This document shows, piece after piece, positions 32,885-44,048 of a DNA stretch of 49,632 bases. Made by a program: the position numbers and the translations under genes. The notes beneath the pieces are model-generated. The model was not told the origin of the DNA, did not search any database, and was given only the letters and a program-made list of their open reading frames with translations. Position 1 is the stretch's first letter. Each line of letters begins with the position of its first letter. This stretch comes from an uncultured Actinomycetes bacterium (GTDB lineage Bacteria; Actinomycetota; Actinomycetes; Nanopelagicales; Nanopelagicaceae), in NCBI GenBank assembly GCA_903933585.1, contig CAIZKO010000039.1, forward strand, positions 1 to 49,632, given 5' to 3'.

Positions 32885-33779
32885 CGCCGGCGAAGAGATC
32901 TAGCTCTCTGCCTGCCTTGTCATATGGCCCGCCCGCTTCACCTTTTACACGAATGTAATATTCGCTTCCAGTGATTCGAGTCGATAGCCGCTTTGAAAAT
33001 TTAAAGAGATCGCCATGAAGGATCAGCTGCGTTTTATGCGCACGCAGCGCCGCCAATTTCTGCGGAAGGAATTTCTCGCCATCATATTTTGTCGTTACAA
33101 CTCCATCTGCTTTAACAAATGGGAGAGCCAACCACTGCGCCGGTACATAGTTAAAGAACTTAATCAGAATCTGAATGAATACATTGCTGCTTCGCAGACT
33201 GCCGTGCAGCGCAGACCGAGGTATGGCGCTCCAATAGATCTTTGAAATCTCCCAAGGAGCTCCGGTTCCAAACGTTGGATCCGCTGCTAGCTCCGCGGCC
33301 CGCATTGCGATCTGGTGTGCTTTGATGTGGTCAGGGTGGCCATATCCCCCATGATCATCGTAGGAAATCAATACCTGGGGTTTGCGCTCCCGAATAATTT
33401 CTACGAGTCGAGTCGATGCTTCGTCGAGATCTGCCCGCCAAAAGCAGTCGGGGCGTTCATTGGGAGGCGTTCCCATCATCCCGCTGTCGCGATATTCACG
33501 CTCTGGGGCGCCTAAGAATTGAAAGTCAGTGACGCCTAATTCGGTCATAGCCGCAGCTAACTCACCCTCTCGGTACTTACCCAAGGAATCTTCCTTCGCC
33601 GCCGCGTGATGAGCTAACGATGGAACTAGGACTTCGCCCTCTTCCCCGCGCGTGCAGGTGACCAGGGTGACCGCCGCTCCTTCTGACCGATAACCAGCCA
33701 TAGTGGCGCCGTTGTTAATAGTTTCGTCATCTGGGTGAGCATGCACCAAGAGAAGTCGTCGCGCAGGCAATTGGTTCAT
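32874..33779 (-). CDS. mshB: Mycothiol biosynthesis deacetylase MshB
   Basis: A 301-residue LmbE/PIG-L family zinc hydrolase that deacetylates GlcNAc-inositol in mycothiol synthesis. HAHPDDE (13-19) gives zinc ligands His15 and Asp18 and base Asp17, TCTRGEEGEV and GKYREGELAAAM follow, and GGYGHPDH holds the third zinc ligand. The GEEGEV and YRDSGMMGT stretches favour MshB over the conjugate amidase Mca. A CATAAT box 6 nt before the ATG suggests leaderless mRNA. The gene is divergent from the TetR regulator across 35 bp and overlaps the CysRS gene tail to tail by 11 nt. Confidence 0.92.
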   Translation of the reverse strand: MNQLPARRLLLVHAHPDDETINNGATMAGYRSEGAAVTLVTCTRGEEGEVLVPSLAHHAAAKEDSLGKYREGELAAAMTELGVTDFQFLGAPEREYRDSGMMGTPPNERPDCFWRADLDEASTRLVEIIRERKPQVLISYDDHGGYGHPDHIKAHQIAMRAAELAADPTFGTGAPWEISKIYWSAIPRSALHGSLRSSNVFIQILIKFFNYVPAQWLALPFVKADGVVTTKYDGEKFLPQKLAALRAHKTQLILHGDLFKFSKRLSTRITGSEYYIRVKGEAGGPYDKAGRELDLFAGVKE

Positions 33780-33785
33780 GGGCTC

Positions 33786-33791
33786 ATTATG
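33786..33791 (-). promoter_or_regulatory. -10 box of leaderless mshB promoter
   Basis: CATAAT on the minus strand, 6 nt before the mshB ATG, within the 35-bp divergent gap shared with the TetR gene. Confidence 0.45.
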
Positions 33792-33801
33792 AATGATGAG
33801 A

Positions 33802-33807
33802 TACCAT
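33802..33807 (+). promoter_or_regulatory. -10 box of leaderless tetR promoter
   Basis: TACCAT on the plus strand, 7 nt before ATG 33815; no ribosome-binding site. This spacing favours ATG 33815 over GTG 33809. Confidence 0.48.
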
Positions 33808-33814
33808 CGTGCGA

Positions 33815-34414
33815 ATGAACGAGGAAAAGATCCGCTTACCCCGCGATGAGCGCCGGGCTACGCTCTTAGCTGCCGCTTTAGAAGTTTTCACAGCCGTCGG
33901 ATATCACGCCGCCGCTATGGATGAGATTGCGGATCAAGCCAGCGTGAGCAAGCCCGTTCTCTACCAACATTTTCCCTCAAAACTCGATCTCTATTTGGCC
34001 GTCCTAGATATCCACTGTGAATACTTGGTGGCAGATATCCGCGCCGCCGTGGGTTCCACCAAGGACAACGCCGGGAGAGTGCTAGCAACTGTTAACGCCT
34101 ACTTCGACTTTATCAATCGCGAAGGTGAAGCTTTCCGCCTCCTCTTTGAGAGCGATATGGCCGTGGAGCCGCAAGTGCACGAAAGACTTAATCGGATGTC
34201 CTATGACTGTGCCATGGCTTTTAGTGAGGCGATCACGACCGATACCGGAATCTCCCAAGAGTCGGCGATGATGCTTGCGGTGGGACTCATCGGTACCGCA
34301 CAGACCACGGCGCGCCATTGGCTTGCGCGTGATGGAAAGATCGATCGCGAGTTGGCGGTAAAGCTTGTGGCCAGTCTGCAGTGGCGTGGAATTTCAGGTT
34401 TCCGCAAGATCTGA
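33815..34414 (+). CDS. TetR family transcriptional regulator
   Basis: A 199-residue one-component repressor. The N-terminal helix-turn-helix (about residues 10-55: FTAVGYHAAAMDEIADQASV then SKPVLYQHFPSKLDL) is typical TetR; the rest is the all-helical ligand-binding domain, with the GLIGTAQTTARHWL segment seen in actinobacterial homologues. It is divergent from mshB, so it may control mshB and itself, but no obvious operator palindrome was found in the 35-bp gap. DUF3107 follows 19 nt later with its own -10 box. Ligand unknown. Confidence 0.88.
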   Translation: MNEEKIRLPRDERRATLLAAALEVFTAVGYHAAAMDEIADQASVSKPVLYQHFPSKLDLYLAVLDIHCEYLVADIRAAVGSTKDNAGRVLATVNAYFDFINREGEAFRLLFESDMAVEPQVHERLNRMSYDCAMAFSEAITTDTGISQESAMMLAVGLIGTAQTTARHWLARDGKIDRELAVKLVASLQWRGISGFRKI

Positions 34415-34421
34415 AGAGCAC

Positions 34422-34427
34422 TAAACT
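34422..34427 (+). promoter_or_regulatory. -10 box of leaderless DUF3107 promoter
   Basis: TAAACT, 6 nt before the ATG at 34434, in the 19-nt gap after the TetR gene. Confidence 0.5.
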
Positions 34428-34433
34428 CTAGGC

Positions 34434-34685
34434 ATGGGTAAAAAAGATAAAGATTCTAAGACCTCAATTCGCGTTGGGATTAGCGACAGCTCCCAAGAGC
34501 TCCACTTTGAAACCTTGCTGGGACATGAAAAGGTCGTAGCGCTCGCCAATGAGGCAATTTCGGGTGGCACTACTCTGGTGCTCGTTGATATTAAAGATCG
34601 CACAATCTTGGTGCCTGCCGGGAAGATCTCTTACATCGAAATCGGCGATACCTCTGATCAAAAAGTTGGATTTACCTCGTTATAA
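34434..34685 (+). CDS. DUF3107 family protein
   Basis: An 83-residue soluble protein of the actinobacterial DUF3107 family, function unknown. The conserved tail is VLVDIKDRTILVPAGKISYI followed by EIGDT. It lacks membrane segments and catalytic motifs and often lies near TetR genes in Actinobacteria. Its last 14 nt overlap the oppositely oriented PHP gene. A leaderless promoter just upstream suggests it is expressed independently of the TetR gene. Confidence 0.88.
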   Translation: MGKKDKDSKTSIRVGISDSSQELHFETLLGHEKVVALANEAISGGTTLVLVDIKDRTILVPAGKISYIEIGDTSDQKVGFTSL

Positions 34686-35517
34686 CCCGGCGAGCATTTG
34701 CCTTCGACTCTAACTTTTCAAACTCCACAGGATCGGTATGGAACTCCGCTAGTTGATTGAGTTTTCCATTTCCGTGATAATCACTCGATCCAGTCTTTAC
34801 TAAATCATATTGTCGCGCAATATTGGATAACAATTCGCGGTTCTCTAAGGTGTGATCGCGGTGAAACACTTCAATGCCATCGAGGCCAGCCGCGACATAA
34901 CTTTCAAAGCTTGCGGCAGAAACTACTCGACCACGTAGCGAAGACATGGGATGCGCGATTACCGCTACTCCCCCTGCCTGCTTGATTAATTCGATGGCAA
35001 CCTCTGGAGTCGGAGAGTAGTGCGCAACATAATATGGCGAATTATTATGTAGGACTTCCGCGAAGACCTCTTCCCTAGATTTCATATAGCCCTTTGCGAC
35101 GAGCGCATCGGCTAAGTGTGGGCGGCCTAAGGTGGCCCCATCAGAGAGTTGCGCCTCGACATCCTCCATAGTTATTGAATAATCCGCTGCGTTTAGTCTT
35201 GCAATAATTTTGTGCATCCGGCCGATTCGATTATCTCGCGTCTTTGCCATCATCGTCATCAAAGCTTCTTCGTTCCTATCAAAGAGTAGGCCGAGCATGT
35301 GGACACTGATTCCGTCGGTCGTCTGACAAGAAATTTCTGAACCTAGAACAAGTGATAAGCCAGGGCGAAGTTGGTTGCTCGCTTCGTCCCAACCCGCGAC
35401 CGTGTCATGGTCCGTTAACGCTATGGTGGTTAGCCCCGCTGCATGAGCTTTATTAATTAATATACTCGGCGTATCAGTACCATCACTGAAATTCGAATGG
35501 GTATGTAGATCAATCAT
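34672..35517 (-). CDS. PHP domain phosphoesterase
   Basis: A 281-residue metal-dependent phosphoesterase of the PHP family (COG0613-like; relatives hydrolyse 3',5'-nucleoside bisphosphates or short RNA ends). N-terminal DLHTHSNFSDG gives metal ligands His5, His7 and Asp12, TTIALTDHDT gives the next ones, and GSEISCQ, IAHPMSS and GSSDYHGNG supply the rest. The ATG at 35517 overlaps the eamA stop by 8 nt; a longer open frame to 35715 reads back through that gene and has no PHP similarity. Last gene of the MgtE_N-NRAMP-EamA-PHP operon. Substrate not determinable. Confidence 0.9.
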   Translation of the reverse strand: MIDLHTHSNFSDGTDTPSILINKAHAAGLTTIALTDHDTVAGWDEASNQLRPGLSLVLGSEISCQTTDGISVHMLGLLFDRNEEALMTMMAKTRDNRIGRMHKIIARLNAADYSITMEDVEAQLSDGATLGRPHLADALVAKGYMKSREEVFAEVLHNNSPYYVAHYSPTPEVAIELIKQAGGVAVIAHPMSSLRGRVVSAASFESYVAAGLDGIEVFHRDHTLENRELLSNIARQYDLVKTGSSDYHGNGKLNQLAEFHTDPVEFEKLESKANARRVITR

Positions 35518-36409
35518 TGTCACTCTTGTTCCGCAAGACAAAGATGGCGCATCCAATAAGGAGGCCGAAGATTCCCGGAATTGTTCCCGCCGAGGGCCTT
35601 TGATGTAGCCAGAACCAGGCGATGATGGCCGCGACTGGAACCTCGAAGAAGACGACAAGGGACACGACGACTGGCGATACTCTCTTGAGAGACATGTTGA
35701 AAAGAGTGTGTCCAAAAAATTGGGCTCCGATAATCAGACCGGCTAAGTAAATCCATTGCAATGCGGGAAAGTGCACGAGCTTTGAACCCGTAGATAAACT
35801 TACAAAGAGGGTTGTCACCGCGCACGAGGAAAAACATACAGTCGTATAGGTCGATGTTGCTAGCGACTTCTGAACTCCAGAACCAATGATCATGTAAGCA
35901 GCAGCAAGAGCGCTGCAGAGGATTCCGAAGAGATCGCCTTCAAAGGCCCGGGTAGATAGTGAGAAATCGACTCCGGTGATTAGGAGAAGCGAGGCGAAGG
36001 CGAGAAACATTCCACCTAACGACTGCGAGGATATTCGCGCCCCGCGAATTTTCATATAGAGCGCCGCGAAGATTGGTTGCAGCGCTGCTAGAGCGGTGCC
36101 GGCCGCCACCGAGGTAAATCGCATCGCGGCGAAGAAGGCCAAGAAGTGGGCGGCGAGGAAGATTCCAGCCAGCGCTGATATCGCGATCAGGCGACGATTC
36201 TTTCGCTCGAACATCTCGCCCGATTTGATGGCAAAGGGAGCCATGATGAGCGCTCCCCCAAGGTTGCGCCAGAAGATGAGGGTTGGGATAGGCATTGAAC
36301 TCTTAGCAATCAGCGGACCCGATGATCCGATCCCCAAAATTCCAGCGAGGAGAAAGGGGATGTCTCTACCTTTTGGAAGGGCGGTATGGTCGTGCGTATT
36401 TACTGTCAC
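35510..36409 (-). CDS. EamA/DMT superfamily transporter
   Basis: A 299-residue membrane protein with ten predicted helices arranged as two EamA repeats (about 15-145 and 160-290), including FWRNLGGALIMAPF and a terminal ...FVLRNKSDND. DMT exporters move amino acids, nucleobases or other small metabolites out of the cell. GTG start overlapping the NRAMP stop (GTGA); it in turn overlaps the PHP start by 8 nt. Substrate unknown. Confidence 0.88.
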   Translation of the reverse strand: MTVNTHDHTALPKGRDIPFLLAGILGIGSSGPLIAKSSMPIPTLIFWRNLGGALIMAPFAIKSGEMFERKNRRLIAISALAGIFLAAHFLAFFAAMRFTSVAAGTALAALQPIFAALYMKIRGARISSQSLGGMFLAFASLLLITGVDFSLSTRAFEGDLFGILCSALAAAYMIIGSGVQKSLATSTYTTVCFSSCAVTTLFVSLSTGSKLVHFPALQWIYLAGLIIGAQFFGHTLFNMSLKRVSPVVVSLVVFFEVPVAAIIAWFWLHQRPSAGTIPGIFGLLIGCAIFVLRNKSDND

Positions 36410-37656
36410 AATTTAAAGATAAACCAGAATTGAGCAAGTACGCAGACTCCGACGAGGGCAATAATGGCGCCGTACAGGGTCAACGAACGCTTCCCTGCGG
36501 TGAATTCGCCCATCAACTTCTTATCGCGCGCGATGCCGAACATATATGCAAGAAGTGGAAGCAAGAGAATGGCATTCAAGACCTGAGAAGATATCAAAAT
36601 CCAGATAAGTGATACCCCGGGGATCATAATTAATCCACCAGCCACTACGGTGATTGCTGCAAAGGTCATGTAGAAAAGCGGGGCCTCATCAAATTTATCA
36701 TCGAGCGCTGCTGGGGAACCGGTCAAATCGCCCACTGAATAAGCAGTGGAAAGTGGCAATATCGAAGCAGCTAAAAGCGCGGCGCCGATGATTCCGATTG
36801 CAAAGATATCTTTAGCAAGGGTTCCAGCCAGTGGCTCCAGGGCGCGGGCAGCTTGCGAAGCATCGGTGATATTTGTAATGTGTTGTGCATTGAGAGTTGC
36901 GGCGCAAGTAACTATTACAAAAAATCCGATAATTCCGGTTAATGCCGAACCCACCCAGACATCGGCTCGCAATAATTTGAGGTCAGCTCGGGTAAGGCGC
37001 TTATCCACTGCATACGATTGAATAAAAGCTAGCCCCCAAGGAGCCAAAGTGGTTCCGAGGGTTGCAGTCGCTATGTTTACAGCGTCGCGAGTAAATGGCA
37101 TAGAAGGGACGACCATACCGTGCAACGCAGATCCCCAATGAGGATGCGACATGAATCCGGCAACAACGTAAGAAATAAAGACAGCGGAGAGTACGAAAAA
37201 TACGCGCTCCGCCTTTTTGAAGGTTCCACGTAGAACAAGCGAAGAGATCAAGAAGCCGGTGAGAGGAACAGTTATATAGCGCGAGATTCCAAAAAGTTGA
37301 CCGGCAGCGGCAACGCCGGCAAATTCTGCTGTCATAGTTCCGACATTCGCCAATATCAATGCCACTGCGCTAAAACTTCCGGCACGAGCGCCATACTTTT
37401 GACGCACTAAACCGATGAGCCCTTGGCGAGTTACAACGCCGATGCGCGCGCCTAAATCTTGAAAGACTATAAGCGCAAATGTTGAAACGACAAGAACCCA
37501 GAGCATGCGATAGCCATATTTAGCTCCGAGTTGCGAGTAAGTCGTGATTCCGGCCGGATCATCATCCGACAAGCCTGCAATCACTCCAGGTCCCATGACC
37601 GATAAAAAGGCCGCAATTCTCAGCTTGCGGCCACTCGGAATAGTTATGTTGCTCAT
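36406..37656 (-). CDS. NRAMP-related divalent metal transporter, probable Mg2+ type
   Basis: A 416-residue membrane protein with about 11 helices of the NRAMP/LeuT fold. The first helix carries GPGVIAGLSDDDPAGITTY (22-40) where classical NRAMPs have D-P-G-N, and the sixth has GTTLAPWGLAFIQS (201-214) where they have M-P-H. So the metal-binding asparagine, methionine and histidine are replaced, with the transition-metal-selecting Met changed to Ala. Such changes are reported for NRAMP-related Mg2+ transporters. It is coupled (ATGA) to an upstream MgtE_N/CBS protein, a Mg2+ sensor module. Mn2+ transport is the alternative. Confidence 0.85.
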   Translation of the reverse strand: MSNITIPSGRKLRIAAFLSVMGPGVIAGLSDDDPAGITTYSQLGAKYGYRMLWVLVVSTFALIVFQDLGARIGVVTRQGLIGLVRQKYGARAGSFSAVALILANVGTMTAEFAGVAAAGQLFGISRYITVPLTGFLISSLVLRGTFKKAERVFFVLSAVFISYVVAGFMSHPHWGSALHGMVVPSMPFTRDAVNIATATLGTTLAPWGLAFIQSYAVDKRLTRADLKLLRADVWVGSALTGIIGFFVIVTCAATLNAQHITNITDASQAARALEPLAGTLAKDIFAIGIIGAALLAASILPLSTAYSVGDLTGSPAALDDKFDEAPLFYMTFAAITVVAGGLIMIPGVSLIWILISSQVLNAILLLPLLAYMFGIARDKKLMGEFTAGKRSLTLYGAIIALVGVCVLAQFWFIFKL

Positions 37657-38987
37657 GATCGCGATACCCCGCCTTGCGTAAAGCGATTGCGATTCTGCGA
37701 GAGCGCGTCGACCAGATCATCGGCGAGAATCCGACCAATCGGCTTGTTCTTCTCATCAATGACGATAATTGAGGAACCGCGGTTATTGGAAAATTCTTCA
37801 ACAACTTCATTGATCGGAGTCTCAATCGTGACTGCAGTGGGAAAGGGTTTAGCCATGAGCGTTGAAACTAGACTCGAAGGAGCGGCACCAATTAACTCTA
37901 CGGTCTGAATGTGATCGAGGAGTTTGCCTTTGCTATCGACTACGACAACTCCGTCGGAGCTTTCACGTTCTCTATTTTCTACCAGCAACTGCAATGCAGT
38001 AGCCACGCTATCAGTGCTTTTTACAATCAAGATGTGAGTGGTCATTATGCCGCCCGCCAGCTCTTCGTCGAAAGAAACCAACTCGCGTAACTGCTTGGCT
38101 GTTCCAACTTCCATGGCGTCCAAAATACTTTCGCGGTGTTCTTCTTCAAGATCGCGCAGTACTTCGGCTGACTCATCCGGTTCCATGTGGGATAGAAGTT
38201 TCGCGGAGCTCTCTGCAGTTAAGCCTCGGAGCAGACCCTCAAGTTCGTCATCTTCCATCTCTTCGAGTACGTCGGCGGCTAGAGCTGGATCCAACATTTC
38301 AATGAGTGCACCCTGCTCTCGACCGGCAAGATCTTCAATGAGATCGGCTAAGTCGGCAGGTCGCAATTGGCTCAGCGCGGAACGAGTTGCAGAGGTGCGA
38401 ACTACTCCCGTGGAATCTGTCAACGAGGCAACCGATGCCCAATCGAGGACGTGTTCAGGAGTTGGCCTGCGGGAAATTGATCCGGGAAAGAGTCGGCGCA
38501 AGAAGGACATAAAGGAGATATCAACTCCAACGACTCGGATCTCTTTATTAAAAGGTGCCAGGTAGAGATCAGAGGTGCGCACCACTCGCAGCCCATCAAC
38601 ATCAACGATCTGGTGATCCAGCACATCAGCATCGAGAAGTGATTCGCCGGGACGACGAGAAAAAGTTTCGAGATTGATCTTCGCCGAAGAGAGGGTGATC
38701 GAACTTGGGGTAAGAACCGAAATACGAGCCCCGTTGATAAATGACTTGCTATTGGCGATCTTGACTATCAAACCCGATACGGGTGGATATGTCTCTTCAC
38801 CATGTCGAACGACAACATCAACGAGTCGACCGATCTCTCGACCATCGGGTCCAAAGACCGGACGACCGATCAACCCCGCGAGAGAGACGAGCGAATCTCG
38901 AACACTCTTCCGGGAGATCAAAAGATCGCTACGACCAACCAACCGCTTTGCAACGGTATTAATAGAGGAGACTGGAGGGCGTTTCAC
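37653..38987 (-). CDS. PRC-barrel / MgtE N-terminal / CBS protein (soluble Mg2+ sensor)
   Basis: A 444-residue protein without membrane helices. Domains: two PRC-barrel-like segments (about 35-160; LIGRPVFGPDGREIGRLVDV), an MgtE N-domain with superhelical repeats (about 195-320; LRPADLADLIEDLAG, EMEDDELEGLLRGL) and a CBS pair (about 325-435). MgtE N and CBS domains bind Mg2+ and gate the MgtE channel, but the channel itself is missing here. GTG start, 6 nt after a TAGACT box, so leaderless. It is followed immediately by the NRAMP-related gene; in mycobacteria a similar protein (Rv1232c) lies near mrp, as here. Confidence 0.87.
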   Translation of the reverse strand: MKRPPVSSINTVAKRLVGRSDLLISRKSVRDSLVSLAGLIGRPVFGPDGREIGRLVDVVVRHGEETYPPVSGLIVKIANSKSFINGARISVLTPSSITLSSAKINLETFSRRPGESLLDADVLDHQIVDVDGLRVVRTSDLYLAPFNKEIRVVGVDISFMSFLRRLFPGSISRRPTPEHVLDWASVASLTDSTGVVRTSATRSALSQLRPADLADLIEDLAGREQGALIEMLDPALAADVLEEMEDDELEGLLRGLTAESSAKLLSHMEPDESAEVLRDLEEEHRESILDAMEVGTAKQLRELVSFDEELAGGIMTTHILIVKSTDSVATALQLLVENRERESSDGVVVVDSKGKLLDHIQTVELIGAAPSSLVSTLMAKPFPTAVTIETPINEVVEEFSNNRGSSIIVIDEKNKPIGRILADDLVDALSQNRNRFTQGGVSRS

Positions 38988-38993
38988 CCCGTC

Positions 38994-38999
38994 AGTCTA
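38994..38999 (-). promoter_or_regulatory. -10 box of leaderless MgtE_N operon promoter
   Basis: TAGACT on the minus strand, 6 nt before the GTG at 38987; probably drives the four-gene operon down to the PHP gene. Confidence 0.5.
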
Positions 39000-39022
39000 C
39001 GGGCTCACCGATGGATCAAGGA

Positions 39023-40150
39023 TTAGGTGTGCAGTGAAAGTGGTACCCCGACTAAGGAGCGGGGACGAATCATGATCGCGGATAAGAGTTCATCAAATGT
39101 TTTCTTGATCAGCCCGTCTCCAGCGTCGAGATACGCGGGGGTTCCATGATCTCCGCCATCGCGCAGTTGGATATCAAAGGGCACTTTAGCCAGAAGCGGA
39201 ATCTGCGAACCCACCAGTGCGCTCAAGCGCTTCGCAGTTTCTGCCCCGCCGCCTGCTCCAAAGATCGCGATCGGCTGACCGCAGTGTGGACAAGGGCTTT
39301 CGGACATATTCTCGACGACACCAAGGATCCGTTGCTTCATCTGAAATGCAATTCTTCCAGCCCGCTCAGCCACTTCGGCGGCGGCGACCTGTGGAGTTGT
39401 CACGACAAGAATTTCTGAGCGCGGGATCAACTGTCCTAACGAGATAGCGATATCTCCGGTGCCCGGTGGTAGGTCGAGGAGGAGCAGATCAAGTGATCCC
39501 CAGTAGGCATCTGTCATGAGTTGCTCGAGAACTCGATGGAGCAGCGGGCCACGATATGCAATTGGATCTTCGCGATTTGGCTTAAACATCTCCATGGAAA
39601 CTATTTTGACTCCGTGATTTTCTACCGGAATAAATGTCTGATCAAGCGCAGTTGGCCGCTTATCTAAAATTCCCATAAGACGAGGGATTGAGTGACCGTA
39701 AACATCCGCATCCAATATTCCAACGCTCAAACCACGGGCCGCTGCGGCGACAGCTAAGTTGGCGGTTACGGAGGATTTTCCAACTCCGCCCTTGCCCGAG
39801 GCAACACCAATCACGCGCGTTAAAGAGTCAGGTTGCGCAAATTGATTAAATTTTTCTCGGCCGCCGCGGAGTAACTTCTTAACAGCATCGCGCTCTTCGT
39901 CGTTCATTACTCCAAAATTAATAACGACAGAATTGATGCCTGCTATCGCCTCAACCGCAGATCCGATATCGGTCTGCAACTGATCGCGCATTGGACACCC
40001 GACAATTGTTAATTTAATGGCGATAGTCGCGATGCCATCGGCAAAGAGAACGGATTCCACCATCCCCAGGTCAGGCAAGGGACGACGAAGTTCAGGGTCA
40101 TTCACCTGCGACAAAGCCTTGTGGATCTCTGCAATTACCTCTTGAGTCAT
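39023..40150 (-). CDS. mrp: Mrp/ApbC P-loop ATPase, Fe-S carrier
   Basis: A 375-residue Fe-S cluster carrier. Residues 3-80 are a MIP18/DUF59 domain; the ATPase domain has the deviant Walker A SGKGGVGKSS (118-127), DADVYGHS, LDLPPGTGDIAIS and the cluster-binding SPCPHCGQ near residue 285. Mrp binds and delivers Fe-S clusters to apoproteins. It is 6 nt after a TAGAGT box with no ribosome-binding site: leaderless. Located between the MgtE_N gene and htrA, as in the mycobacterial Rv1223-Rv1232c region. Confidence 0.94.
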   Translation of the reverse strand: MTQEVIAEIHKALSQVNDPELRRPLPDLGMVESVLFADGIATIAIKLTIVGCPMRDQLQTDIGSAVEAIAGINSVVINFGVMNDEERDAVKKLLRGGREKFNQFAQPDSLTRVIGVASGKGGVGKSSVTANLAVAAAARGLSVGILDADVYGHSIPRLMGILDKRPTALDQTFIPVENHGVKIVSMEMFKPNREDPIAYRGPLLHRVLEQLMTDAYWGSLDLLLLDLPPGTGDIAISLGQLIPRSEILVVTTPQVAAAEVAERAGRIAFQMKQRILGVVENMSESPCPHCGQPIAIFGAGGGAETAKRLSALVGSQIPLLAKVPFDIQLRDGGDHGTPAYLDAGDGLIKKTFDELLSAIMIRPRSLVGVPLSLHT

Positions 40151-40156
40151 AGGCGA

Positions 40157-40162
40157 ACTCTA
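40157..40162 (-). promoter_or_regulatory. -10 box of leaderless mrp promoter
   Basis: TAGAGT on the minus strand, 6 nt before the mrp ATG, in the 17-bp gap after htrA. Confidence 0.5.
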
Positions 40163-40167
40163 CGACC

Positions 40168-41355
40168 CTATTTGGACGCGATAAGTGTGATCTTGACCGA
40201 CTTGATCACAGTACCCCGCTGATACTTCAGGGTTACGGTGTCACCGATTGAATGTGCTCGAATCGCGACGATGAGATCGTCGGCGACGGCAATATCTTTG
40301 CCATCAATGGCAAGAATGATGTCGCCTCTTTGGAATCCTGCTTTAGCCGCAGGACCGCCAGGCAGAATTGCGTTCGAAGTATTGGCAATCTTTGCGCCGG
40401 GACCGGCAAAACTGGAATCAAGGGACATCCCAACTATTGGATAGTGTGAGGTTCCGGTCTTGATCAGTTGATCCGCGGTCTTTTTGGCTTGGTTAATGGG
40501 GATAGAGAAACCTAAGCCAATCGAACCTGGTTGACCTGAAATCGAGTTCCCCAGAGAAGCGATTGCGGAGTTAACACCGATGACCGCTCCGGTTGAATCC
40601 ACTAAAGGCCCACCAGAATTACCAGGGTTGATGGCGGCATCAGTCTGAAGTGCATCGATGAACGAGCTTTCTCCCGCGGTGTTATCTGAGCTGGTTGTGA
40701 CGGGACGATTCTTGGCAGAGATGATTCCCGTCGTCACAGTTCCTTGCAACCCGAGCGGTGATCCAATTGCAATAACAGGATCTCCGACCTGAACATTGTC
40801 GCTGTTGCCGAGAACGAGGGCAGGAGCTCCCGTTATATCGATTTTGAGAACGGCGAGATCATAGGAAGTATCGCGCCCCACAAGGGTCGCCGTGTACTGG
40901 GTGTTGTTGGAAAGTTTGACCGTGATGGGTGTCTTTGCGAGCACTGCTGCTTCGACCACGTGGTTGTTAGTCATGATGTATCCGCTTGACTCAATAAAGA
41001 AACCAGTACCTGTATCTGTTCCTGCAGTGGTACTCGAATCAACTTCTACAACAGATGGAAGGACGCGAGCGGCAATTCCGGCAACCGAGTTAGGTGCGCG
41101 ACTGATAATTGAGGTGGATGTGACCATGTGATGCGAATTATCAAATGCAACTTTGCCAATCAGCGCGCCAACTAATCCGGCGATTAACGACATAGCCAAA
41201 GCCATGTACCAAGTGACTTGAACTACGCGCTTGAGAGGAGCTATAGGCGCAAAGTTAGCGGCCATCGATTGACCATCCGAAACCCACCAAGGGGTCTGCG
41301 TTGGGGTTGGAGAAGGATTGGGTACTTCGTTGACGATTGATTCCTCTTCAGACAT
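40168..41355 (-). CDS. htrA: HtrA/DegP-like membrane-anchored serine protease
   Basis: A 395-residue quality-control protease: cytoplasmic N terminus rich in Pro, one membrane helix (about 47-68), trypsin-like domain with His132, Asp166 and Ser247 (TNNHVVEAA, SYDLAVLKI, NPGNSGGPLV) and one C-terminal PDZ domain (about 310-395). It degrades or refolds misfolded exported proteins. The ATG at 41355 follows a perfect TATAAT by 6 nt, so I prefer it to a GTG two codons upstream. The sigE, rseA and tatB genes that neighbour htrA in mycobacteria are absent. Confidence 0.94.
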   Translation of the reverse strand: MSEEESIVNEVPNPSPTPTQTPWWVSDGQSMAANFAPIAPLKRVVQVTWYMALAMSLIAGLVGALIGKVAFDNSHHMVTSTSIISRAPNSVAGIAARVLPSVVEVDSSTTAGTDTGTGFFIESSGYIMTNNHVVEAAVLAKTPITVKLSNNTQYTATLVGRDTSYDLAVLKIDITGAPALVLGNSDNVQVGDPVIAIGSPLGLQGTVTTGIISAKNRPVTTSSDNTAGESSFIDALQTDAAINPGNSGGPLVDSTGAVIGVNSAIASLGNSISGQPGSIGLGFSIPINQAKKTADQLIKTGTSHYPIVGMSLDSSFAGPGAKIANTSNAILPGGPAAKAGFQRGDIILAIDGKDIAVADDLIVAIRAHSIGDTVTLKYQRGTVIKSVKITLIASK

Positions 41356-41361
41356 TCTCAC

Positions 41362-41367
41362 ATTATA
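41362..41367 (-). promoter_or_regulatory. Consensus -10 box of leaderless htrA promoter
   Basis: Perfect TATAAT on the minus strand, 6 nt before the htrA ATG; the clearest leaderless promoter in the window. Confidence 0.65.
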
Positions 41368-41373
41368 AGTCAG

Positions 41374-42003
41374 TTAAAGCTTTGTTGCCAGAAGTACTCC
41401 GCCGCCCAGCGGCAAAACAATGGAACTCCAACGCGAATCCTCTTTTACGGCGCGTATCCCGTCACGGCGCGAAATACTCTCAAAATCTCGCTGCGTGGGA
41501 TCGGCCACTTTCCCGCCGCTGAGCACATGATCCACGAAGAGCATCCCACCGGGTCGGAGCAGGCGATACGACTCGTGAATGAGATCCATCAAATCGGATG
41601 CAGGTCGAATAACAACGAGGTCATAATTGTTATCTGCAAGTTTGCCGACAACTTCCATAATAGTTCCTGTGATTAAACGAAAGCGCTGAGTTGAAATCCC
41701 GGACTCTTCAAAGACAGATCGGGCAGAAGCGGCGTGCTCGCGTTCGGTATCGATAGAGGTAAGGACTGCATCTACGCCTGCACCGGCGAAGAGCCAGAGC
41801 CCACTCACACCTGAACCAGTTCCAATTTCAACGATGGATCGCGCCTTAAGAGATTCAACCGCAAAGCGGAGCAGACCACCGACCGCAGGAGATGGATCAA
41901 GGGTGCCTAACTCTTCAGCATTGTTGCGGGCTTGTTGCATGAATATATCTTCGCGAACGTAGGCCTCAGCAAATGCTGACATATCGCCGCGGTTACCGAT
42001 CAT
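41374..42003 (-). CDS. O-methyltransferase family protein (Rv1220c-like)
   Basis: An S-adenosylmethionine-dependent methyltransferase of about 209 residues. Motif I is IVEIGTGSGVSGLWL near residue 55-69, the acidic TSIDTE end of strand 2 follows, and LRPGGMLFVDHVLSGG is the post-motif region typical of the catechol-O-methyltransferase-like family. I place the start at the ATG overlapping the pepA stop (ATGA); an ATG 18 nt upstream is possible. It stands beside htrA as Rv1220c does in M. tuberculosis. Substrate unknown. Confidence 0.83.
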   Translation of the reverse strand: MIGNRGDMSAFAEAYVREDIFMQQARNNAEELGTLDPSPAVGGLLRFAVESLKARSIVEIGTGSGVSGLWLFAGAGVDAVLTSIDTEREHAASARSVFEESGISTQRFRLITGTIMEVVGKLADNNYDLVVIRPASDLMDLIHESYRLLRPGGMLFVDHVLSGGKVADPTQRDFESISRRDGIRAVKEDSRWSSIVLPLGGGVLLATKL

Positions 42004-43517
42004 GAGAGAGATGTTAGCCATTCGATGAGCAAACGGGTGCCAAATCCAGTTCCACCTTTAATAACTTCGCCAGAATCCACCTCAGATCGCGCTGGTCCTG
42101 CGATATCGAGGTGCACCCAGTTTCGCTTCCCAACGAAGTGCTCTAAGAAGAGCGCCGCGGTAACCGATCCGGCGCTGAAATGTTGAGCCGAAGCATCGTG
42201 ATTGAGATCAGCTACTGGGCTGGCCAGTGAGGGTAGGTAATCATCTTGCAGTGGCATCGGCCAGACGCGATCTCCGATGCGCTCACCGATCTCGTGAAGC
42301 TGCGCTGTCAAAGAGGCATTGCGTGAATACATCGCACCATATTGTTTTCCCAGACCGAGCGTGGCTGAACCAGTGAGTGTTGCAATATCTAACAAGTAAT
42401 CCGGTTTTAACTCCAGGTCCGCATATGCCAGCCCGTCGGCGAGCACTAATCGACCTTCCGCATCTGTGTTGATAATTTCTACGGTGGTACCACCGAACTG
42501 TGTGATCACATCTGAAGGGCGTTGTGCCGTTCCAGAAACCATATTCGCAGCGCACATCATGAGCGCAGTAATTCGCACGCGTGGTTGAATCTTCGCCATT
42601 GCAACAGTTGCGGTCAATATTGCCGCCGCACCTGCCATATCGCTCTTCATCGGAATCATCAGATCGTACGGTCGCTTCATAGAGATGCCGCCGGTATCGT
42701 AGGTAATACCCTTGCCAACCAATACAACATGAGGCCAGTTCTTACTTCCCGCTGGTTCATAGCGAATTTCAATGAGCCGTGGGAGATCGCTCGGAGATGA
42801 CTTTCCAACTGCGCGCAATCCCCCGAATGCTTCAAGCTCGCGACCCTTTTTAACAGTGACGGTTAAATCTGGGTTCTTCGCTTGGCGAACGAGCAATTTA
42901 GCTTGTTCTGCTAGCCAGGCCGGGTTCTTGATATTTGAAGGAGTGTGAATGAGATCGCGAGTCCGCCAGGTTGCCTCTGCAAGAATGCTCGCGCGTACTG
43001 CTACATCTGAAAGTTCTTCATCAAATATAAACGCCGTGGCTCCTTTTTCGCGGGCATTTACATCGCTCTTGGAGTAATCGCTCTTAAGATTCCAACCGTA
43101 TTGTGAAAGTGATAACGCAACCAGATGCGCGAGCGCAGCGTCGTATTCCCCGGAGTAAGTACTGAAGATTGAATAACCGGTTGATTTCACCTTCCGGCCG
43201 AGCGCGGCTCCGGCTTTGCGAGCATCCTCTGTGGAGTCGCTACCAAGACCGAGAATAAATAGCCGAATGAGCGTGCCCGATTGGGTAAGGGGTATTTCCA
43301 GTATCTCCCCAGCCTTGGCGGTGAAGTTAGGCCACTGCTGGAGGATCTCGGCATAAGTGTTTCCACTCTTTGCGAGAATCTGAGAGGTAATTTCGTTCGA
43401 CTCTACTTCCGAACCGGTATCAGAGGCGTAGGCGGGAATAACTAGGGCGTTGAATTTAGCGAGCGCATCTGGCGAGATAGGACCAACCGTTGAAAAAGTT
43501 GGCTGAGGCAGATGCAT
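42000..43517 (-). CDS. pepA: Leucyl aminopeptidase PepA (M17)
   Basis: A 505-residue cytoplasmic aminopeptidase with an N-terminal macro-like domain (about 1-165) and a C-terminal catalytic domain holding two metals: VGKGITYDTGGISMK (metal-ligand Lys and Asp, near 270-285), PMKSDMAGAA, and NTDAEGRLVLAD (near 345). The start ATG follows a TAGAGT box by 6 nt; that box includes the stop codon of the DUF3117 gene. It overlaps the methyltransferase start by ATGA. Probably peptide turnover. Confidence 0.95.
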   Translation of the reverse strand: MHLPQPTFSTVGPISPDALAKFNALVIPAYASDTGSEVESNEITSQILAKSGNTYAEILQQWPNFTAKAGEILEIPLTQSGTLIRLFILGLGSDSTEDARKAGAALGRKVKSTGYSIFSTYSGEYDAALAHLVALSLSQYGWNLKSDYSKSDVNAREKGATAFIFDEELSDVAVRASILAEATWRTRDLIHTPSNIKNPAWLAEQAKLLVRQAKNPDLTVTVKKGRELEAFGGLRAVGKSSPSDLPRLIEIRYEPAGSKNWPHVVLVGKGITYDTGGISMKRPYDLMIPMKSDMAGAAAILTATVAMAKIQPRVRITALMMCAANMVSGTAQRPSDVITQFGGTTVEIINTDAEGRLVLADGLAYADLELKPDYLLDIATLTGSATLGLGKQYGAMYSRNASLTAQLHEIGERIGDRVWPMPLQDDYLPSLASPVADLNHDASAQHFSAGSVTAALFLEHFVGKRNWVHLDIAGPARSEVDSGEVIKGGTGFGTRLLIEWLTSLS

Positions 43518-43523
43518 GAGACG

Positions 43524-43529
43524 ACTCTA
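43524..43529 (-). promoter_or_regulatory. -10 box of leaderless pepA promoter, overlapping DUF3117 stop
   Basis: TAGAGT on the minus strand, 6 nt before the pepA ATG; its first three bases are the TAG stop codon of the DUF3117 gene. Confidence 0.48.
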
Positions 43530-43706
43530 TTTCTTAACGAGTGCTACTGCCGCCTGAAGGGCATTTCCTAGATTGGTTGCCTCTTCGACGTTGAGTTCGA
43601 CCACTAAGCGGCCGCCGCCCTCAAGAGGGATTCGCATCACTAGGCTGCGAGCCTCCTTGGTGACCTCCATGGGACCATCGCCAGTTCTTGGTTTCATGGC
43701 TGCCAT
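43527..43706 (-). CDS. DUF3117 family small protein
   Basis: A 59-residue protein, M-A-A-M-K-P-R-T-G-D-G-P-M-E-V-T-K-E at the N terminus followed by MRIPLEGGGRLVVEL, the almost invariant DUF3117 family sequence of Actinobacteria. Function unknown; very strong conservation suggests an essential basic role. AAGGGAG about 7 nt before the ATG is a good ribosome-binding site. Coding on the minus strand between pepA and the sigma-like gene. Confidence 0.93.
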   Translation of the reverse strand: MAAMKPRTGDGPMEVTKEARSLVMRIPLEGGGRLVVELNVEEATNLGNALQAAVALVKK

Positions 43707-43761
43707 GGTGAAACTCCCTTACTTAAAATCAATGAGGAACGTAGAGGAGAAGTATCTCGCA

Positions 43762-43965
43762 TCAGGCCAGAGGTGGGAAATCCAGGGCCGCTAAGAGGCG
43801 CTTCTTGCCACGCTCGATGACCGCGCTGACCACCTTATTCGGGACTCCAAGCGTCTTTGCAATCTCAATTGCGGTCATCCCCTTGACATAATGGAGCGAA
43901 AGAATAAAGCGCTCTTCGTCCGGCAGGCTCGCTAAGAGTTCCGCAATAGACGGCGCCGGCTTCAT
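43762..43965 (-). CDS. Minimal sigma-70 region 4-like helix-turn-helix protein
   Basis: A 67-residue protein: a predicted helix (SIAELLASLPDEERFILSLH) followed by a helix-turn-helix (about 28-48, MTAIEIAKTLGVPNKVVSAV) and a basic recognition tail (ERGKKRLLAA). It looks like region 4 of a sigma-70 factor without regions 2 and 3, so it cannot itself be a normal sigma factor. It might bind DNA or other RNA polymerase-associated proteins. The start at 43965 follows a TAATCT box by 7 nt; a longer frame from 44061 overlaps the dapD promoter and start. Divergent from dapD. Confidence 0.68.
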   Translation of the reverse strand: MKPAPSIAELLASLPDEERFILSLHYVKGMTAIEIAKTLGVPNKVVSAVIERGKKRLLAALDFPPLA

Positions 43966-43972
43966 AGAGGGC

Positions 43973-43978
43973 AGATTA
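43973..43978 (-). promoter_or_regulatory. -10 box of leaderless sigma-like gene promoter
   Basis: TAATCT on the minus strand, 7 nt before the ATG at 43965. Confidence 0.45.
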
Positions 43979-44048
43979 CTAGTAGGACTGGCAAAGTAGC
44001 ACGGGCCTGCAAAAAGGCGCAGCCAACCTTGGTTATTGGGCCATTTGA

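What the first reader, a model, noticed from the sequence alone, without database searches (positions are those of the whole stretch)
36406..38987. Two-part Mg2+ uptake system: soluble MgtE sensor plus divergent NRAMP transporter
A PRC/MgtE_N/CBS protein without a channel is coupled by ATGA to an NRAMP homologue in which the D-P-G-N and M-P-H motifs read D-P-A-G and A-P-W. Loss of the methionine marks NRAMP-related Mg2+ transporters. The pairing suggests that MgtE's Mg2+-sensing domains have been taken over to gate an NRAMP fold. EamA and PHP follow in the operon.
Basis: partly seen in the sequence, partly recalled or inferred. Interest (0 to 1): 0.7.

Follow-up and report, generated by a model that had tools for sequence, protein, structure and literature searches.

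The report
Magnesium transporter with separate MgtE-like sensor
A freshwater actinobacterium carries a probable magnesium importer next to a stand-alone magnesium-sensing protein; this gene pair was first described in 2014, but its close relatives keep a different pair (the same kind of sensor plus an uncharacterised membrane protein, DUF1003) in the very same chromosomal slot, and almost never have both.

Summary
Window 36406-37656 (-) is an NRAMP-fold protein and 37653-38987 (-) is a soluble MgtE_N/CBS protein, joined by ATGA. The transporter belongs to the NRMT (NRAMP-related Mg2+ transporter) branch. Its best solved relative is EleNRMT (286 versus 87 bits for DraNramp), the tree splits it from classical NRAMPs at 100/100, and all six EleNRMT site residues checked are identical. 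[quoted passage not shown]

The pair and the gating idea are not new: Shin et al. 2014 (PMC4072509) reported both. They also showed that the transporter works without the partner, and that one paired homologue behaved as a Mn2+ transporter whose Mg2+ rescue the partner did not improve. The pair is widespread: 63 of 80 NRMT loci from many phyla, 7 of 16 scanned with an M-box riboswitch.

New here: in the same family, a related MgtE-like gene plus DUF1003 occupies the same slot between mrp and eamA. Of 151 genomes, 58 have only NRMT, 80 only DUF1003 and 1 both; the exchange took place as whole cassettes. With phylogeny accounted for this is suggestive, not significant. Gating remains inference.

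The parts
37653..38987 (-). Soluble MgtE-like protein (PRC-like N-terminus, MgtE_N, CBS pair), 444 aa, GTG start
38490..38891 (-). Two predicted PRC-type beta-barrels (residues about 33-166); holds most of the invariant residues of the 20-sequence alignment (D124, Q126, D129, R137, D140, D156, R164, R165)
   Evidence: AlphaFold2 model; alignment A2; PRC hit in homologues
38061..38366 (-). MgtE_N domain; D239, D271 and E275 align with TtMgtE Mg2+-site residues E59, D91 and D95
37698..38054 (-). CBS pair; D424 and D427 align with TtMgtE D247 and D250; the ATP-site residues of MgtE are not kept
37653..37656 (-). ATGA stop/start overlap of the two genes
   Evidence: sequence
36406..37656 (-). NRMT-type transporter (NRAMP/SLC11 fold), 416 aa
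37549..37560 (-). TM1 ion-site motif D33-P-A-G36 (EleNRMT D55..G58)
37036..37053 (-). TM6 ion-site motif T202-T-L-A205-P-W207 (EleNRMT T224..A227); the proton-path histidines of NRAMPs are W207 and Q
39023..40150 (-). mrp (Fe-S carrier ATPase): upstream border of the slot, not part of the system
35510..36409 (-). eamA: downstream border of the slot (GTGA overlap with the NRMT stop), not part of the system

Best explanation
The pair is a two-gene Mg2+ uptake system. The NRMT-type carrier moves largely hydrated Mg2+ (and, less selectively, Mn2+) into the cell without proton coupling, as EleNRMT does. The soluble MgtE-like protein is its cytoplasmic Mg2+ sensor. When cytosolic Mg2+ is high, Mg2+ bridges the MgtE_N and CBS domains, and the compact form holds the carrier shut or slows it. 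The PRC-like N-terminus would be the docking part that replaces the covalent link to a pore. Shown here: the families, the ion-site residues, the kept Mg2+-bridging acids, the conserved order sensor-then-transporter, and the M-box riboswitch on the same operon in distant relatives. Inferred: Mg2+ transport by this protein, the physical contact, and the sign of the regulation.
For: Nearest solved structure by sequence and by fold is EleNRMT (4.2e-84, 286 bits versus 87 for DraNramp; TM 0.87). The tree puts it with EleNRMT, split from classical NRAMPs at 100/100. D55, G58, E133, T224, A227 and Q379 of EleNRMT are D33, G36, E111, T202, A205 and Q358 here; T224 is needed for Mg2+ in EleNRMT (PMC8806188). 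The partner's fold is the MgtE cytosolic domain (Z 22.8 to 8gpv over 248 residues, 21.0 to 2yvy). Five of the six TtMgtE Mg2+-site positions checked are acidic here, including both Mg4 residues, D91/D247 = D271/D424 (roles from PMC5882242). Of 150 MgtE_N genes listed in 296 Actinomycetota genomes, 49 lie next to an NRAMP, all on the same strand, the sensor upstream in 47. 63 of 80 NRMT loci from many phyla carry the sensor. M-boxes stand before the operon in 7 of 16 loci scanned. Of 151 genomes of the order none has an MgtE pore and 41 with NRMT have no CorA; of 8 such genomes checked, only one has an MgtA over the cut-off.
Against: In Shin et al. 2014 two clostridial NRMTs restored Mg2+ uptake without the partner gene, and co-expressing the Acidobacterium capsulatum partner did not improve Mg2+ rescue; that transporter rescued Mn2+ instead. 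One Mg5 residue is Arg here (R403 for D226), and no plug helix or pore exists to act on. There is no M-box at this locus. The genome also has a CorA, so NRMT need not be the main importer. Some members of the same transporter subclade have no sensor next door (L157, L158, L169-L172, L174, L175). No complex was modelled.
Confidence: 0.58

Rival explanations
1. The transporter is in practice a Mn2+ (or broad divalent metal) importer, and the MgtE-like partner answers to Mn2+ or to total divalent metal.
For: The A. capsulatum paired homologue rescued Mn2+ but hardly Mg2+. EleNRMT itself moves Mn2+ with a Km of about 0.12 mM. The window genome has a CorA for Mg2+ and no other NRAMP.
Against: Thr at the position that confers Mg2+ use, no Met, and all EleNRMT site residues kept. 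Relatives with the same operon are controlled by the Mg2+ riboswitch. Many sister genomes have NRMT but no CorA or MgtE pore.
Confidence: 0.22
2. The MgtE-like protein senses Mg2+ but does not gate NRMT by contact. It acts as an assembly factor, metal chaperone or signalling protein, and the shared operon reflects a common purpose only.
For: NRMTs work without it. The same kind of protein stands next to an unrelated membrane protein (DUF1003) in other genomes. In one transporter subclade the sensor is a 260-300 aa form without the PRC part.
Against: Order and close linkage are strongly kept, and each partner type has its own MgtE-like branch (100/100), as expected if the two proteins must fit each other.
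Confidence: 0.2

Closest known systems
NrmT/NRMT operons with an MgtE N-domain gene (Shin et al. 2014, Clostridium acetobutylicum Ca_c0685, A. capsulatum)
   Same: Same two gene types, mostly in the same order; the feedback idea was already proposed there
   Different: No M-box here; one intact sensor with a PRC-like N-terminus (in Ca_c0685 it is split in two genes); carrier of the DPAG subclade, not the EleNRMT subclade
EleNRMT (PDB 7qia; Ramanadane et al. 2022)
   Same: Fold, D..G/T..A ion site, lost proton-path histidines; 38% identity over 393 columns
   Different: TM1 reads DDDPAG, not GNDAGG; separate subclade
MgtE Mg2+ channel (T. thermophilus)
   Same: N domain and CBS pair, N-CBS Mg2+-bridging acids
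   Different: No membrane pore, extra PRC-like N-terminus, ATP-site residues not kept
MgtE_N/CBS + DUF1003 gene pair of Actinomycetes
   Same: Same sensor architecture, same chromosomal slot in this family, sensor gene first
   Different: Partner is a roughly 165-aa protein with two predicted TM helices and no known function; its MgtE-like protein is a separate branch

Membership tests
NRMT (NRAMP-related Mg2+ transporter) | D..G / T..A(or T) ion-site motif in place of the NRAMP consensus | tested here: met
   D33, G36, T202, A205; consensus from PMC8806188
NRMT (NRAMP-related Mg2+ transporter) | Groups with characterised NRMTs, apart from Mn2+/Fe2+ NRAMPs | tested here: met
   Split from classical at 100/100; best structure EleNRMT by sequence and fold. 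The fork that unites the window's subclade with that of EleNRMT is weaker (95/66)
NRMT (NRAMP-related Mg2+ transporter) | Mg2+ transport | not testable with these tools
   needs an assay
NRMT (NRAMP-related Mg2+ transporter) | M-box riboswitch on the operon (frequent, not defining) | tested here: not met
   No Rfam match up to E 1 in 33000-44000; present in 7 of 16 relatives
Classical MntH/NRAMP | DPGN and MPH motifs, NCBIfam MntH/nramp cut-offs | tested here: not met
   DPAG, APW; 122 of 430 bits and 65 of 272 bits
MgtE Mg2+ channel | MgtE pore domain (PF01769) and membrane helices | tested here: not met
MgtE cytosolic Mg2+ sensor (fold and sites) | N domain + CBS pair with Mg2+-bridging acidic residues | tested here: met
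   Z 22.8 to 8gpv; 5 of 6 site positions acidic; Mg2+ binding itself not tested

The most novel reading that the evidence does not exclude
The soluble MgtE_N/CBS protein is a general cytosolic Mg2+ sensor that serves interchangeable membrane partners, and DUF1003, a family of unknown function with two predicted TM helices, is a Mg2+ transport protein or Mg2+-regulated membrane partner that does the same job as NRMT. In Nanopelagicaceae-like genomes one cassette has repeatedly replaced the other.
Probability: 0.33. Interest if true: 0.75.

Novelty: new member of a known kind. Interest (0 to 1): 0.42.

Why it matters
The finding as given extends a published but little-followed idea: that bacteria detach the MgtE sensor and use it to control another transporter. 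It adds residue-level support and a much wider survey. The side result matters more. A near-perfect either/or between the NRMT cassette and the DUF1003 cassette in one chromosomal slot gives the first functional lead found here for DUF1003, a family present in most of the Actinomycetes sampled, and a simple test (does the DUF1003 pair rescue a Mg2+-uptake mutant?). Twelve DUF1003-only genomes checked (98-100% complete) have no CorA, MgtE pore, NRMT or MgtA over the cut-off, so their Mg2+ importer is otherwise unassigned apart from CNNM/CorC proteins.

Tried and rejected
(1) NRMT replacing CorA: NRMT and CorA are not anti-correlated over 151 genomes (18 both, 41 NRMT only, 36 CorA only, 56 neither; Fisher p 0.30). 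(2) Partner swap at a constant sensor: rejected, because the sensors of the two cassettes are separate branches at 100/100, so whole cassettes were exchanged. (3) The either/or as a proven functional link: the raw Fisher p of 1.7e-28 ignores kinship. On the Mrp tree about 10 changes are needed, but only 5 contrasts lie on supported branches and the sign test gives median p 0.25. It is also not universal: a mycobacterium-like genome (G038) has an NRMT with a short MgtE-like gene and also has DUF1003. (4) M-box or other known RNA at the locus: none. (5) A solved relative of DUF1003: none by sequence. (6) Literature on Rv1231c/Rv1232c or DUF1003 in metal transport: none in the papers that these searches listed (titles and abstracts only).

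Full report
What is there. On the minus strand run mtase, htrA, mrp, the MgtE-like gene (38987-37653), the NRAMP-type gene (37656-36406), eamA and php. The first overlap is ATGA, the second GTGA. The MgtE-like gene starts 36 bases after mrp, so it has no promoter space of its own and probably shares the mrp transcript (inference).

The transporter. By sequence its best solved relative is EleNRMT (7qia, 286 bits); DraNramp scores 87 and the other NRAMPs less. NCBIfam's MntH and nramp models stay far below their cut-offs. The AlphaFold model (pLDDT 88) finds EleNRMT first, TM 0.87, E 3.7e-25. In a tree of 54 proteins (IQ-TREE, LG+C20) it lies with EleNRMT and other MgtE-linked transporters, split from classical NRAMPs at 100/100; the fork that unites its own subclade with that of EleNRMT has 95/66. 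All six EleNRMT positions checked are identical: D33, G36, E111, T202, A205, Q358; classical proteins have N, A and M at the second, fourth and fifth, and the DDPSG outgroup has D, S and A at the third, fifth and sixth. In EleNRMT, T224A removes Mg2+ but not Mn2+ transport (PMC8806188). The two NRAMP histidines of the proton path are W and Q here, so proton coupling is unlikely (inference from PMC8806188).

The partner. MgtE_N and two CBS stretches are clear. The PRC part is weak here and clear in homologues; AlphaFold shows two small barrels. The MgtE_N/CBS half superposes on MgtE cytosolic domains (Z 20-23 over about 230-255 residues). I mapped the TtMgtE residues whose mutation disturbs Mg2+-dependent closure (PMC5882242) with the numbering checked on the acidic and ATP-site residues. 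E59, D91, D95, D247 and D250 align with D239, D271, E275, D424 and D427; D226 aligns with R403. Apart from the D226 position, which is mostly Asn or basic elsewhere too, these positions are acidic in most partners of other NRMTs and nearly all partners of DUF1003. The ATP-site residues (PMC5529423) are not kept. So the protein has most of what MgtE uses to bridge N and CBS domains with Mg2+, and nothing of the pore.

How general the pair is. In 296 Actinomycetota genomes, of the 150 MgtE_N genes listed 49 lie next to an NRAMP and 42 next to DUF1003, none next to both; all are on the same strand, and the sensor is first in 47 of 49 and 42 of 42 (inputs). Among 80 named NRMT loci from many phyla, 63 have a MgtE-like gene in the flank (several MAG titles are plainly mislabelled). 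M-box riboswitches stand upstream of the operon in 7 of 16 loci scanned: six from Firmicutes (Peptococcaceae, Desulfosporosinus, Pelosinus and one unclassified) and one from Geobacteraceae. All this agrees with Shin et al. 2014 (PMC4072509), who named NrmT, reported the MgtE-N-like companion and proposed feedback regulation. They also reported two facts that limit it: the clostridial carriers worked without the companion, and the A. capsulatum carrier was a Mn2+ transporter whose Mg2+ rescue the companion did not improve.

What is new: the same slot holds another cassette. In 34 of 97 genomes of the family examined, the space between mrp and eamA holds, in the opposite orientation, a MgtE-like gene followed by DUF1003 (PF06210, about 165 aa, two predicted TM helices). 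In 30 (the window included) it holds the MgtE-like + NRMT pair. In 26 it is empty and the NRMT cassette lies elsewhere in the genome. In 7 it is empty with no cassette found. Over 151 genomes 58 have NRMT only, 80 DUF1003 only, 1 both and 12 neither. Nearly all genomes of the same class sampled outside the family have DUF1003, most of them listed next to MgtE_N, so that cassette is probably the older one. The sensors of the two cassettes are separate branches at 100/100, so whole cassettes were exchanged. On an Mrp tree the traits change about ten times, but only five contrasts rest on supported branches, and the sign test is not significant. I therefore treat functional equivalence of NRMT and DUF1003 as a good hypothesis, not a result. 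Twelve DUF1003-only genomes checked lack CorA, MgtE pore, NRMT and any MgtA over the cut-off; all have CNNM/CorC proteins.

Sensor re-pairing. The window's carrier belongs to a DPAG subclade. Other members in Mycobacterium, Mycolicibacterium, Nocardioides and Microthrix have a 260-300 aa partner without the PRC part, and some (Patulibacter and several MAGs from other phyla) have no MgtE-like neighbour. The window's full-length sensor instead groups (100) with partners of a different carrier type (TPY; L116, L137, L138). So sensor and carrier have probably been re-paired at least once.

Mechanism and verdict. Most likely this is an uncoupled Mg2+ carrier under feedback by a detached MgtE sensor, the PRC part serving for docking. 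Family, ion site, sensor residues and linkage are shown; transport, contact and sign of control are inferred. As a system it is a new member of a kind described in 2014. The exchange with DUF1003 is the part that deserves follow-up.

Noticed in passing
slot between mrp and eamA; L067-L084, L241-L320: Alternative cassette MgtE-like + DUF1003 in the same slot, in the opposite orientation, and cleanly empty slots in genomes whose NRMT cassette lies elsewhere
   Followed up: yes
L267-L270, L280 and window 40150-40168: tatB, which lies between htrA and mrp in relatives, is missing there in the window and in its nearest relatives
   Followed up: no
L142-L144, L146: A few genomes of the same family carry a different NRAMP-type protein (DDPSG in TM1, SPY in TM6), a separate 100/100 clade with no MgtE-like gene found in the about 1-kb flanks
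   Followed up: partly
L217:1974-2463: Two M-box riboswitches in tandem before the MgtE-like + NRMT operon of a Pelosinus MAG
   Followed up: no
G299, G305-G308, G312, G314-G316, G321, G327, G341: 98-100% complete genomes with no CorA, MgtE pore, NRMT or MgtA over the cut-off; CNNM/CorC and the DUF1003 cassette are the Mg2+-related candidates seen
   Followed up: partly
L268 (G354): The MgtE-like gene appears broken into two reading frames in one close relative whose NRMT gene is intact
   Followed up: no
L159-L161, L166, L168 versus window: The sensor partner of one NRMT subclade is either a full protein with PRC part or a short form without it: re-pairing of sensor and carrier
   Followed up: partly
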